Assembly: GCA_951812745.1 (NCBI GenBank)
Contig: OX638327.1
Location: 1 to 64,000, forward strand
DNA length: 64,000 bases
Origin: an uncultured Nitrospirales bacterium
Lineage (GTDB): Bacteria > Nitrospirota > Nitrospiria > Nitrospirales > UBA8639
Direction of reading: 5' to 3'
In this document: one piece after another, positions 10,528-62,072 of the stretch
Position numbering within the stretch: the first letter of the stretch is position 1
Layout: each line of letters starts with the position of its first letter
Position numbers and translations under genes: made by a program
Notes under the pieces: generated by a model
The model's database searches: none
What the model was told of the DNA's origin: nothing
Seen by the model: the letters and a program-made list of their open reading frames with translations, nothing else

Positions 10528-10815
10528 ATGGCCAAAGCTATGACAAAGGCTCAGATCGTTGATCAGTTGGCGACAAGGTCTGGAGTGACCAAAAAAACCG
10601 CGAGTGAAATTCTCGATAACTTGGCTGCTCTGGCTTACAAAGAAGCGAAAAACACTTTTACTGTGCCCGGACTTGGAAAGTTAGTGCTGTCTCATCGGAA
10701 GGCGCGAACCGGAAGAAATCCCCAAACCGGCGCACCGATTAAAATTCCGGCGAAGAAAGTGGTGAAGTTCCGGGTTGCCAAAGTCGCGAAAGATTCTATC
10801 TTAGGCAAAAAGTAA
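10528..10815 (+). CDS. HU-family DNA-binding protein
   Basis: The 95-residue product is a nucleoid-associated HU/IHF-fold protein that bends DNA as a dimer. The N-terminal helical part (MTKAQIVDQLATRSGVTKK) and the arm sequence GRNPQTGAPIKIPAKKVVKF with the DNA-intercalating proline in RNPQTG are typical of HU. A strong ribosome-binding site (AGAGGAGG, 10514-10521) precedes the ATG by six bases. The upstream promoter and a downstream hairpin make it a single-gene unit. HU rather than IHF is likely from the RNPxTG arm, but the two are hard to separate by sequence alone. It shares its nucleoid role with the H1-like genes at 40.6-41.1 kb. Confidence 0.93.
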   Translation: MAKAMTKAQIVDQLATRSGVTKKTASEILDNLAALAYKEAKNTFTVPGLGKLVLSHRKARTGRNPQTGAPIKIPAKKVVKFRVAKVAKDSILGKK

Positions 10816-39516: not shown

Positions 39517-39750
39517 ACACACCCAAAAGAGAAGTTCTCGCGGGGTTTCGTCCCCGCACGACGAGGTCCTTTTGTTTCGGCAAAAGGACCCAAAACTATT
39601 GGCGCCCGGGCGTGGCCCTCCGGGTGCCTTTGCCCCAGTCCCGATTACTGGGGCTGCGGAACTCGCTTCGCTCAGACAGTCCTCGCCCTCAAACCGGTGT
39701 CGGGACCGGGTCGCAGCCACGCCCGCAGGCGCTGGGACATGGCGCCTACA
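39517..39750 (+). repeat. Dispersed 230-bp multi-hairpin element, copy 1
   Basis: The element contains, in order, GCGGGG/CCCCGC (39540-39545/39552-39557), a perfect 10-bp hairpin GGTCCTTTTG/CAAAAGGACC (39565-39574/39581-39590) with loop TTTCGG, a hairpin CCCCAGT/ACTGGGG (39633-39639/39647-39653), and a long-range pairing GGGCGTGGC (39608-39616)/GCCACGCCC (39716-39724). A second copy, inverted, lies at 61843-62072. It sits immediately upstream of rlmN. Any reading frame through it (e.g. with RSFCFGKRTQN) is a by-product of the repeat. Confidence 0.88.
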
Positions 39751-39769: not shown

Positions 39770-39963
39770 TTGTTGATCTGTTTGAAAACATACCAAATAT
39801 AGGCTTAGAAATATTGCATGACAGCAAGTTCATATATTATGTAGTTGATGAATAATAAATTGAGTTAGAAGTGTATTCATTGACGTAGATGTTAATATGC
39901 AAAAATTTATTATTGACTTGCTTTTGAATTAATGATAAAAGCAAGCAACATAAAAGCTTGCTT
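39770..39963. other. AT-rich intergenic stretch before the HARE-HTH gene
   Basis: This roughly 190-bp stretch is far richer in A and T than everything around it. It ends with an 8-bp hairpin, AAGCAAGC (39940-39947 approx.)/GCTTGCTT, just before the start codon of the next gene, and holds a possible -35 TTGACT (39913-39918). No gene is seen. The change in base use suggests either acquired DNA or a nucleoid-protein-bound promoter. Confidence 0.6.
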
Positions 39964-40500
39964 ATGCAAATGGAAGAAGTCAAAGATGAACTCAGAGATA
40001 TTATTGTCGGCTTGGAGCAGCGCATTACTGCCTACGAAACCAAGCTCAAAGACTTCAAGAAAAAAAGGGAGAGGCTCAATGAAGAAATTGCGACCATTGA
40101 GAAATACTTGGAGTTGGCAAAGACGTTATATCGAGTTGAAGCGGACAAAGCGAAATTGGCCAGTCTCTCCAGCCAAATCATTTCGGATGAAACGGGCGCA
40201 CCACCATTACCGGTCACGGATGTCACGGATCAATCCAAGGAAATCCTTCTGGGGCGCAGCAAGTACGTCGGGATGAGCGTTCCCGATGCCGCGTCCATCA
40301 TTTTCCGGGAAACGCGAGGGCCGATGCATGCCAAAGAATTGTGCCGGCGTCTCATCGAAGGGGGCATGCAGATCAGAGGCAAAACGCCGGTCACGTCGAT
40401 TGCCACCTCCCTCAAACGTGACCCCCGGTTCAGAAAAGTGGGACCGAATACCTTTGAACACGCGGAGTCGACGGACAAACCCATGAACGCGTCCGGATAA
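39964..40500 (+). CDS. Coiled-coil protein with a HARE-HTH domain
   Basis: The 178-residue protein has an N-terminal coiled coil (about residues 5-70, heptad pattern in KDELRDIIVGLEQRITAYETK and following) and a C-terminal winged-helix HARE-HTH domain: SVPDAASIIFRETRGPMHAKELCRRL with SIATSLKRDPRFRKVGPNTFEHA. HARE-HTH domains occur in chromatin proteins, RNA polymerase delta and restriction enzymes and are predicted to bind modified or bent DNA. Start choice among TTG 39958, ATG 39964 and ATG 39970 is not firm. It lies immediately before two histone-like genes on the same strand. Confidence 0.75.
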   Translation: MQMEEVKDELRDIIVGLEQRITAYETKLKDFKKKRERLNEEIATIEKYLELAKTLYRVEADKAKLASLSSQIISDETGAPPLPVTDVTDQSKEILLGRSKYVGMSVPDAASIIFRETRGPMHAKELCRRLIEGGMQIRGKTPVTSIATSLKRDPRFRKVGPNTFEHAESTDKPMNASG

Positions 40501-40585
40501 CGTGGAAACATCCGGACAAGAATGAGGCGATGAAGGAACGCGTCGTGAATCATCATTGCCGCAACACTGGAAGGAGGTGAGACGG

Positions 40586-40720
40586 TTGGCAACAGCAAAG
40601 AAGAAGGCACCGGCCAAGAAGGCCGCGAAGAAGAAAGCTCCCGCCAAGAAAGCTGCCAAGAAGAAGGCTCCAGCTAAGAAGGCTGCCAAGAAAAAGGCTC
40701 CCGCCAAGAAGAAGAGGTGA
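40586..40720 (+). CDS. Histone H1-like Lys/Ala/Pro-rich protein, copy A
   Basis: A TTG start with a near-perfect ribosome-binding site (AAGGAGGTGA, 8 bases before) opens a 44-residue frame: MATAKKKAPAKKAAKKK, then more units of APAKKAAKKK, ending in APAKKKR. It has no hydrophobic core and matches the repetitive C-terminal tails of bacterial H1-like proteins (Hc1/AlgP style) that bind DNA. An alternative in-frame GTG at 40577 overlaps the ribosome-binding site and is less likely. It is followed by its own hairpin. Confidence 0.82.
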   Translation: MATAKKKAPAKKAAKKKAPAKKAAKKKAPAKKAAKKKAPAKKKR

Positions 40721-40744
40721 ACATTCTCCACGCTTCACGATACT

Positions 40745-40784
40745 GCTGGGAGTAGACCAGTCTACTCCCAGCCAGCCTTCTTTC
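40745..40784 (+). terminator. Hairpin terminator after H1-like copy A
   Basis: GCTGGGAGTAGAC (40745-40757) and GTCTACTCCCAGC (40760-40772) are a perfect 13-bp stem with a minimal loop, followed by CAGCCTTCTTTCT, a modest T-rich tail. Confidence 0.6.
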
Positions 40785-40966
40785 TCATGTTCTCAAGACC
40801 GGAACACGCTATGAGCTTTCTCGTGACCAACGACAAACGTGTGTCATGAAGAAAAAAGATTGAAAAATGGTATTTAGGAGAGTAAGAAGCACTCAGGGTT
40901 TTAGACTTCGCTGTGATGATTGAGAACGACGTAGTCTCGGAAAAAACCTGAAAGGAGGTGAGACTA

Positions 40967-41101
40967 TTGGCAACAGCCAAGAAGAAAGCCCCGGCTAAGA
41001 AGGCTGCCAAGAAGAAAGCTCCAGCTAAGAAGGCCGCCAAGAAGAAAGCTCCGGCCAAGAAGGCCGCCAAGAAGAAAGCCCCGGCCAAGAAAAAGAAATA
41101 G
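40967..41101 (+). CDS. Histone H1-like Lys/Ala/Pro-rich protein, copy B
   Basis: A second 44-residue frame, again starting with TTG behind AAAGGAGGTGAGAC, repeats the APAKKAAKKK unit and ends in APAKKKK. It differs from copy A mainly at synonymous third positions (e.g. GCC/GCT), so the protein is conserved while the DNA has drifted, a sign of selection. It is followed by a strong terminator. Both copies probably coat or compact DNA; this is inferred from composition. Confidence 0.82.
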   Translation: MATAKKKAPAKKAAKKKAPAKKAAKKKAPAKKAAKKKAPAKKKK

Positions 41102-41123
41102 ATTCTCTCGCATGTTGAATACG

Positions 41124-41160
41124 CGGCGGAAGAAGGACCCTTCTTCCGCCGTTGTTTTTT
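41124..41160 (+). terminator. Intrinsic terminator after H1-like copy B
   Basis: CGGCGGAAGAAGG (41124-41136) and CCTTCTTCCGCCG (41139-41151) form a perfect GC-rich 13-bp stem with a minimal loop, followed by TTGTTTTTT (41152-41160). Confidence 0.85.
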
Positions 41161-61842: not shown

Positions 61843-62072
61843 GTGTCATTCCCGGCGCCTTCGGGCGTGGCTGCGTCCTGGTCCCGAAGTCTATTTGGGG
61901 ACGAGGACTGTTTGAGCGAAGCGAGTTCCGCAATCCAAGCCATCGGGACTGGGGCAAAGGCATCCCTTGGGCCACGCCAGGGCGCTGATGGTTTTGGGTC
62001 CTTTTGCCGAAACAAAAGGACCTCGTCGGGCGGGGCGAAACCCCGCAAGAAAACATCCTTTGGGGTCTCCTC
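61843..62072 (-). repeat. Dispersed 230-bp multi-hairpin element, copy 2 (inverted)
   Basis: Read on the minus strand this stretch aligns along its whole length with 39517-39750. A core of about 34 bases, including GGTCCTTTTG/CAAAAGGACC and its loop, is identical; the GCGGGG/CCCCGC hairpin and the long-range GGCGTGGC/GCCACGCC pairing are kept, while the CCCCAGT hairpin of copy 1 is not. It lies between ispG and tRNA-Cys. Confidence 0.88.

What the first reader, a model, noticed from the sequence alone, without database searches (positions are those of the whole stretch)
39770..41160. HARE-HTH protein and twin H1-like genes in an AT-rich setting: a possible nucleoid module
A HARE-HTH coiled-coil protein is followed by two 44-residue Lys/Ala/Pro repeat proteins with the same TTG start, the same AAGGAGGTGA leader and separate terminators. 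The two proteins are nearly identical while third codon positions differ, indicating selection at protein level. HARE-HTH domains are known from chromatin-associated proteins, so these genes may form an uncharacterised DNA-compaction or DNA-marking module.
Basis: partly seen in the sequence, partly recalled or inferred. Interest (0 to 1): 0.62.

Follow-up and report, generated by a model that had tools for sequence, protein, structure and literature searches.

The report
Winged-helix gene with histone-tail-like micro-proteins
Across the bacterial phylum that includes the nitrite-oxidising Nitrospira, a gene for a likely DNA-binding protein is followed directly by a gene for a tiny, almost purely lysine-alanine(-proline) protein (as short as 11-12 residues) whose sequence is kept by natural selection, which points to an undescribed, probably chromosome-organising, pair of proteins.

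Summary
The window is from the order Nitrospirales (2.35 Mb genome). A HARE-HTH protein gene (~39970-40500) is followed by twin 44-codon Lys/Ala/Pro genes that differ by 20 synonymous and 1 non-synonymous changes. In 99 of 99 assessable orthologous loci, in Nitrospiria and one more family of the phylum, the HARE-HTH gene is followed by such a Lys-rich ORF behind a near-perfect Shine-Dalgarno sequence. Elsewhere in 837 kb of flanks there is one, and it is a second copy. Lengths run from 11 to 113 residues. In 26 Nitrospira-type genomes the 12-mer MATKKAAKKKKK is coded by 14 different DNA sequences. Flanking genes change, but the pair stays. In 22 of 22 other Nitrospirota genomes (19 families) the Lys-rich ORF follows an unrelated winged-helix protein (ArsR-like wHTH + nucleotidyltransferase-like domain); the two partners are mutually exclusive in the genomes tested. 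The HARE protein is predicted as coiled coil, disordered linker and winged helix, the plan of the Bacillus nucleoid protein Rok; its top Foldseek match is Rok, then RNA polymerase delta. Best explanation: a DNA-architecture module in which a dimeric winged-helix protein works with a free-standing H1-like polycation. DNA binding is inferred, not shown; a split-delta transcription role is the main rival.

The parts
39780..39960 (+). AT-rich promoter region of the HARE-HTH gene
   Evidence: GC 27-36%; AT-rich in the same place in 78/78 relatives, <=5th percentile in 77/78
39913..39946 (+). Promoter-like element TTGACT-N15-GATAAA followed by AAGCAAGC, with inverted repeat CTTGCTTTT (39917-39925) / AAAAGCAAG (39937-39945): conserved promoter, possible operator
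   Evidence: Same element (TTGACA-N17-TATAAAGCAAGCATGCTT in Nitrospira) 20-40 nt before the HARE gene in most loci; the 18-mer occurs at most once per genome, there, in the 20 genomes that have it
39970..40500 (+). HARE-HTH protein gene (start ATG 39970 or 39964): long helix/coiled coil (~39970-40182), disordered linker, winged helix (~40273-40461)
   Evidence: PF05066; AlphaFold2 model; orthologues in 55/60 relatives
40571..40580 (+). AAGGAGGTGA, extended Shine-Dalgarno sequence of copy 1
   Evidence: conserved in all relatives
40586..40720 (+). Lys/Ala/Pro H1-like micro-protein, copy 1 (44 aa, TTG start)
   Evidence: orthologue of the ORF that follows the HARE gene in 99/99 assessable loci
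40743..40775 (+). Hairpin after copy 1 (terminator-like, weak T-run)
   Evidence: -22.7 kcal/mol, z -3.5
40952..40961 (+). AAGGAGGTGA, extended Shine-Dalgarno sequence of copy 2
40967..41101 (+). Lys/Ala/Pro H1-like micro-protein, copy 2 (44 aa, TTG start); a duplicate present in several but not all relatives
41123..41160 (+). Intrinsic terminator after copy 2

Best explanation
A two-component chromosome-architecture (nucleoid-associated) module. SHOWN: a conserved gene unit in which a winged-helix protein is followed by a Lys-rich micro-protein under protein-level selection, with a conserved promoter upstream of the HARE gene and a terminator after the Lys-rich gene. PREDICTED: the HARE protein is a long coiled-coil helix (so probably a dimer) joined by a disordered linker to a basic HARE-type winged helix, the plan of Rok. 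INFERRED: the winged helix contacts DNA, the coiled coil lets one dimer hold two DNA segments or form filaments, and the Lys-rich peptide acts in trans as a free H1-like tail that neutralises DNA charge and condenses or loads the complex, as the PAKKA tail of mycobacterial HU does with Lsr2. The AAGCAAGC repeat at the promoter may be its autoregulatory site. In most other Nitrospirota families an ArsR-like winged-helix/nucleotidyltransferase-like protein takes the place of the HARE protein, so what is kept is 'winged helix + polycation'.
For: Gene order kept in 99/99 assessable HARE loci (79; 11; 2; 7) while flanking genes change (rlmN side in one family, IMPase/lpxC side in another). HARE stop codon TGA lies inside the Shine-Dalgarno sequence of the Lys-rich ORF in 5 class- or phylum-level loci, i.e. 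translational coupling. Peptide-level selection: 12-mer with 14 DNA versions and 1 peptide; pN/pS 0.03-0.10 in the 13-, 18-, 27- and 28-residue groups, 0.37 in four divergent 11-mers. Second, unrelated winged-helix partner upstream in 13/13 and then independently 9/9 new loci, including one genome in which the pair is on a different contig from lpxC (G064). Model: helix 2-73 at pLDDT mostly >95, linker 74-95 below 50, winged helix 106-166; top Foldseek match Rok DNA-binding domain 5zuz, prob 0.99. Winged helix mean net charge +6, coiled coil about 0, peptides +7 (12-mer) and +22 (44-mer). The HU proteins read in these genomes carry no Lys-rich tail. Rok as winged-helix nucleoid protein and Lsr2-HU(PAKKA): PMC6936261; DNA binding through the C-terminal domain of mycobacterial HbhA: PMC10665949.
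Against: No DNA-binding, expression or peptide data. Foldseek E-values are weak (5e-3 for Rok, 1e-2 to 8e-2 for delta), and winged helices also bind proteins, as in delta. Lys-rich peptides also bind RNA. A 12-residue peptide may be too short to condense DNA by itself. The unit is not universal: several phylum families (f9, f13, f15, f21, f27, f28, f30) showed neither partner in the genomes tested.
Confidence: 0.52

Rival explanations
1. Split RNA-polymerase-delta-like transcription factor: the HARE domain binds RNA polymerase as in Bacillus delta and the Lys-rich peptide tunes the polymerase-DNA/RNA contact.
For: Delta structures (8x6g, 7f75, 6zca, 2krc) fill ranks 2-5 of the Foldseek list with probability 0.97-1.00; delta's N-terminal domain is the best-studied bacterial HARE-HTH (own knowledge) and the 2020 structure shows it bound to RNA polymerase (PMC7749165).
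Against: Delta has no N-terminal coiled coil and carries an acidic C-terminal tail (net -47, PMC7749165); the Nitrospirota protein has a coiled coil, a basic winged helix and no acidic tail. In other families the partner is an ArsR-type winged helix without HARE.
Confidence: 0.17
2. The Lys-rich peptide is a ribosome- or RNA-associated small basic protein and the winged-helix gene is its regulator.
For: Very strong Shine-Dalgarno sequences suggest high output; composition would suit RNA binding; conserved promoter with a possible operator.
Against: Length varies ten-fold (11-113 aa) without any conserved fold or position, unlike known small ribosomal proteins; the neighbours are never ribosomal genes in the loci examined.
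Confidence: 0.14
3. Defence or toxin-antitoxin unit: winged-helix/MNT with HEPN and a small basic effector.
For: HARE-HTH domains occur in restriction and related defence proteins (PF05066 description; PMC10853773 and PMC12839542 listed); in families f14 and f18 a HEPN-like gene lies between the MNT protein and the Lys-rich ORF.
Against: Single-copy, vertically kept, one locus per genome, syntenic with housekeeping genes; the nucleotidyltransferase-like domain is barely recognisable outside f14/f18 and no HEPN gene is present in most families.
Confidence: 0.07
4. The Lys-rich ORF is not a protein gene but a leader/attenuator or a structured RNA element ahead of a terminator.
For: The shortest forms (11-18 codons) sit next to a strong, conserved hairpin terminator.
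Against: All DNA differences among the 26 12-mer loci are synonymous; ORFs of up to 113 codons; TTG replaced by ATG or GTG at the same place; the next gene is often convergent (lpxC) so there is nothing to attenuate; no Rfam match above threshold.
Confidence: 0.03

Closest known systems
Rok of Bacillus subtilis (H-NS/MvaT/Lsr2-type functional class of DNA-bridging proteins)
   Same: Oligomerising N-terminal part, linker, C-terminal winged helix; closest Foldseek match (PMC6936261)
   Different: No sequence homology shown; HARE-type winged helix; the NTR DNA-recognition triad of Rok was not examined; paired here with a separate polycation
RNA polymerase delta subunit (RpoE of Bacillota)
   Same: Structural match of its HARE-HTH domain
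   Different: Here an N-terminal coiled coil, a basic winged helix and no acidic tail
Histone H1-like bacterial proteins: chlamydial Hc2, AlgP, BpH1
   Same: Lys/Ala/Pro repeats with length variation by repeat number (Hc2: PMC2848022; the others from own knowledge)
   Different: As short as 11-12 residues; always downstream of a winged-helix gene; near-perfect SD with TTG start in most Nitrospirales
PAKKA-type tail of mycobacterial HU, and HbhA
   Same: PAKKA-like repeats; the HU tail binds the bridging protein Lsr2 (PMC6936261); HbhA binds DNA through its C-terminal domain (PMC10665949)
   Different: Here the tail is an independent gene product in trans and the HU proteins read lack tails

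Membership tests
HARE-HTH (PF05066) | Match to the curated profile above the gathering score | tested here: met
   35.9, 52.5, 35.9 and 31.3 bits against cut-off 25.9
HARE-HTH (PF05066) | Winged-helix fold | tested here: met
   AlphaFold2 model and Foldseek matches to delta and other winged helices
RNA polymerase delta | N-terminal HARE-HTH followed by a long acidic disordered tail | tested here: not met
   HARE domain is C-terminal after a coiled coil; no acidic tail
RNA polymerase delta | Bound to RNA polymerase | not testable with these tools
   needs a pull-down
Rok / H-NS-type bridging proteins (functional class) | Oligomerisation domain, linker, C-terminal DNA-binding domain | tested here: met
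   Helix 2-73, disordered 74-95, winged helix 106-166; dimerisation itself not modelled
Rok / H-NS-type bridging proteins (functional class) | Bridges DNA / silences AT-rich DNA | not testable with these tools
   needs bridging assay and ChIP-seq
Rok family by homology | Sequence homology to Rok | tested here: not met
   No Rok chain in the profile search of PDB sequences at E<=10; only coiled coils found
Histone H1-like (Hc2/AlgP-type) proteins | Low-complexity Lys/Ala/Pro repeats, strongly basic | tested here: met
   44 aa, net charge +22
Histone H1-like (Hc2/AlgP-type) proteins | Recognised by a curated family profile | tested here: not met
   No Pfam or NCBIfam match for either twin
Histone H1-like (Hc2/AlgP-type) proteins | Binds and condenses DNA | not testable with these tools
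   needs EMSA / single-molecule assay
MNT-HEPN toxin-antitoxin | Nucleotidyltransferase antitoxin next to a HEPN toxin | tested here: not met
   Absent at the HARE loci examined; HEPN-like gene (identified by eye) beside the MNT-like protein only in f14 and f18 and apparently f17

The most novel reading that the evidence does not exclude
Nitrospirota use a chromatin system made of a winged-helix bridging protein plus a free-standing, ultra-short 'histone tail' peptide (down to 11-12 residues) encoded as a separate gene; the winged-helix partner has been swapped during evolution while the polycation stayed.
Probability: 0.42. Interest if true: 0.82.

Novelty: new variant of a known kind. Interest (0 to 1): 0.68.

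Why it matters
An 11-12 residue peptide conserved by selection across many genomes is below the size that gene finders call and is probably unannotated in most Nitrospira genomes. If it is translated and binds the chromosome it would be among the smallest known architectural proteins, and it would split the 'DNA-bridging protein + basic tail' design of Lsr2-HU into two genes. It also gives a concrete, testable candidate for nucleoid organisation in a phylum of nitrifiers, for which no candidate was found in the papers searched here.

Tried and rejected
(1) Attenuator/leader-peptide reading: rejected by synonymous-only variation, lengths up to 113 aa and convergent downstream genes. (2) Linkage to lpxC rather than to the winged-helix gene: the Lys-rich ORF does sit convergent to lpxC in many families, but the HARE pair lies elsewhere in the window's family and the MNT pair is on a different contig from lpxC in G064. 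(3) Frameshift or readthrough fusion of HARE and tail: the TTG lies in different frames relative to the HARE stop in different loci. (4) Solved-structure profile search: only coiled coils, uninformative for the HARE part. (5) Rfam: nothing above threshold. (6) Literature linking HARE-HTH with Nitrospira or with H1-like proteins: nothing relevant; the original HARE-HTH paper is not held. (8) A DNA-marking role: no modification gene in the conserved unit.

Full report
WHAT IS THERE. The window is positions 1-64000 of a single-contig 2.35 Mb genome whose relatives are MAGs labelled Nitrospira/Nitrospirales. At 39970-40500 (alternative starts 39964 ATG, 39958 TTG) lies a gene for a ~176-residue protein with a C-terminal HARE-HTH domain (PF05066, 35.9 bits against a cut-off of 25.9), the only one in the genome. 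It is followed by two ORFs, 40586-40720 and 40967-41101, each 44 residues, MATAKKKAPAKKAAKKKAPAKKAAKKKAPAKKAAKKKAPAKKK(R/K), each behind AAGGAGGTGA and starting with TTG. Between the twins there are 20 synonymous and 1 non-synonymous differences (pS 0.70, pN 0.010). Neither twin matches a Pfam or NCBIfam model.

CONSERVATION OF THE PAIR. Orthologues of the HARE protein were found in 55 of 60 relatives, in 45 of 57 good-quality genomes of the class and in one further family of the phylum, f20. In the 80 loci, every one that could be assessed (79; one contig ends after 46 nt) has a Lys-rich ORF behind a strong Shine-Dalgarno sequence, usually 41-122 nt after the HARE stop (77 by pattern; L040, masked, and L046, Pro at position 2, by eye). 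The same holds for 11 class- or phylum-level genomes, two more f20 genomes (L141, L143) and seven genomes of families f2 and f4. Total 99 of 99. With the strict leader pattern, 87 such ORFs lie within 1.2 kb after the HARE gene and one elsewhere in 837 kb, and that one is a second copy 1.29 kb downstream. Flanking genes differ between families: rlmN/larE upstream and lipB, IDH or IMPase downstream in the window's family; IMPase upstream and convergent lpxC downstream in Nitrospira itself (lipB and IMPase names are my reading of the sequences). In five class- or phylum-level loci the TGA stop of the HARE gene is part of the Shine-Dalgarno sequence of the Lys-rich ORF (L131, L133, L137, L138, L139), so translation of the two is probably coupled there.

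THE LYS-RICH ORF IS A PROTEIN GENE. Its length ranges from 11 to 113 residues. In 26 genomes it encodes MATKKAAKKKKK with 14 different DNA sequences and no amino-acid change; in the 13-, 18-, 27- and 28-residue groups pN/pS is 0.03-0.10, and 0.37 in four divergent 11-mers. The start codon is TTG in 74, ATG in 2 and GTG in 1 of 77 loci and ATG or GTG in families f2 and f4. A hairpin terminator follows. Second copies occur in several but not all relatives, so the twin arrangement is a local elaboration.

A SECOND WINGED-HELIX PARTNER. All 30 HARE-less Nitrospirota genomes tested have lpxC, and in about half of them a Lys-rich ORF with strong Shine-Dalgarno sequence (mostly ATG start, 14-74 residues) lies convergent to it. 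I took 13 of these loci: in all 13 the upstream protein is of one ~185-residue family, with an N-terminal ArsR-like winged helix (HTH_5, 25.5 bits, over its cut-off) and a nucleotidyltransferase-like C-terminal domain (Polbeta 36.5 bits in f18, degenerate elsewhere). Because these loci had been chosen for the Lys-rich ORF, I searched the winged-helix protein independently in 32 other genomes: 9 full-length hits, 9 of 9 followed by a Lys-rich ORF (one read by eye). In G064 this pair is on a different contig from the two lpxC genes. HARE-bearing genomes G000, G054, G302, G223 and G083 have no such protein and G067 only a partial weak hit; the genomes with it have no full-length HARE hit (G264 has a weak partial one). 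So 22 of 22 genomes from 19 families pair a winged-helix protein with the Lys-rich ORF, and HARE-HTH and wHTH-MNT replace one another. In f14 and f18 a HEPN-like gene lies between the two.

ANATOMY AND LIKELY MECHANISM. AlphaFold2 with 38 aligned sequences gives a 72-residue helix (pLDDT mostly >95), a disordered linker (74-95, below 50) and a winged helix (106-166). pTM is 0.39 because the parts are flexibly joined. Foldseek against the PDB puts the Rok DNA-binding domain first (5zuz, E 5e-3, prob 0.99) and RNA polymerase delta next (ranks 2-5, prob 0.97-1.00). The winged helix is basic (mean +6 over 38 sequences), the coiled coil neutral. Rok is a nucleoid-associated protein with a winged-helix DNA-binding domain, and in mycobacteria the bridging protein Lsr2 binds the (P)AKKA-repeat tail of HU and changes the DNA complex (PMC6936261). 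HbhA of mycobacteria binds DNA through its C-terminal domain and is a nucleoid protein (PMC10665949). The HU proteins I read in this genome and in relatives lack Lys-rich tails. From this I infer a two-part architecture system: a dimeric winged-helix protein plus a free polycation. Shown: gene unit, selection, conserved promoter, partner exchange. Predicted: fold. Inferred: DNA binding, bridging, interaction between the two products.

REGULATION. The ~170 nt before the HARE gene is AT-rich in 78 of 78 loci and at or below the 5th percentile of local GC in 77. A promoter-like element TTGAC(A)-N15-17-(T/G)ATAAA followed by GCAAGC(ATGCTT) is conserved close to the start. In 41 genomes of the Nitrospira family the 18-mer occurs in 20 genomes, once each; the reversed control gave none, and wherever both coordinates are known it lies just upstream of the HARE gene. 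This fits a strong promoter with an autoregulatory site rather than a regulon.

LIMITS. No expression or binding data exist in the tools. The best rival is a split delta-like RNA-polymerase factor, then an RNA-binding peptide. Collection scans were capped, so presence outside Nitrospirota is untested. Several Nitrospirota families (f9, f13, f15, f21, f27, f28, f30) lack both partners in the genomes sampled. Window-scale 'AT-rich setting' applies only to the promoter region, and 'DNA-marking' has no support.

VERDICT. Observation confirmed; interpretation partly supported and widened: not a local curiosity but a conserved winged-helix + polycation unit of Nitrospirota with the shortest conserved H1-like peptides that I know of. 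New variant of a known kind (bacterial H1-like and bridging nucleoid proteins); interest 0.68.

Noticed in passing
39543-39737 and 61850-62044 (inverted): A dispersed ~195-nt intergenic repeat (85% identical, inverted orientation) lies directly upstream of the AT-rich promoter region and again 22 kb away.
   Followed up: partly
L230 (own genome C1:771260): A 251-residue protein with a Lys/Ala/Pro-rich N-terminal half and a strongly acidic C-terminal half: another H1-like protein of the same genome, the only other place with the KKA(A/P)AKK DNA motif.
   Followed up: partly
L119 / genome G185, C3:228219-228480: In one Nitrospira-family genome the HARE gene appears broken (only model positions 48-117 match, one stop inside) while the micro-ORF MATKKGAKKKKR and its leader remain.
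   Followed up: no
L188 (f14), L182 (f18), L238 and L239 (f17): The Lys-rich ORF operon carries a wHTH-MNT gene followed by a HEPN-like gene: an MNT/HEPN-type pair embedded in a vertically kept operon.
   Followed up: partly
about 10528-10815 (+): One of three HU/IHF-like genes of the genome, divergent from the other two, without a Lys-rich tail.
   Followed up: no
L182 (G065), L185 (G072), L237 (G040): Tandem duplicates of the Lys-rich micro-ORF, each with its own strong Shine-Dalgarno sequence (three copies in L182), arose in several lineages.
   Followed up: no
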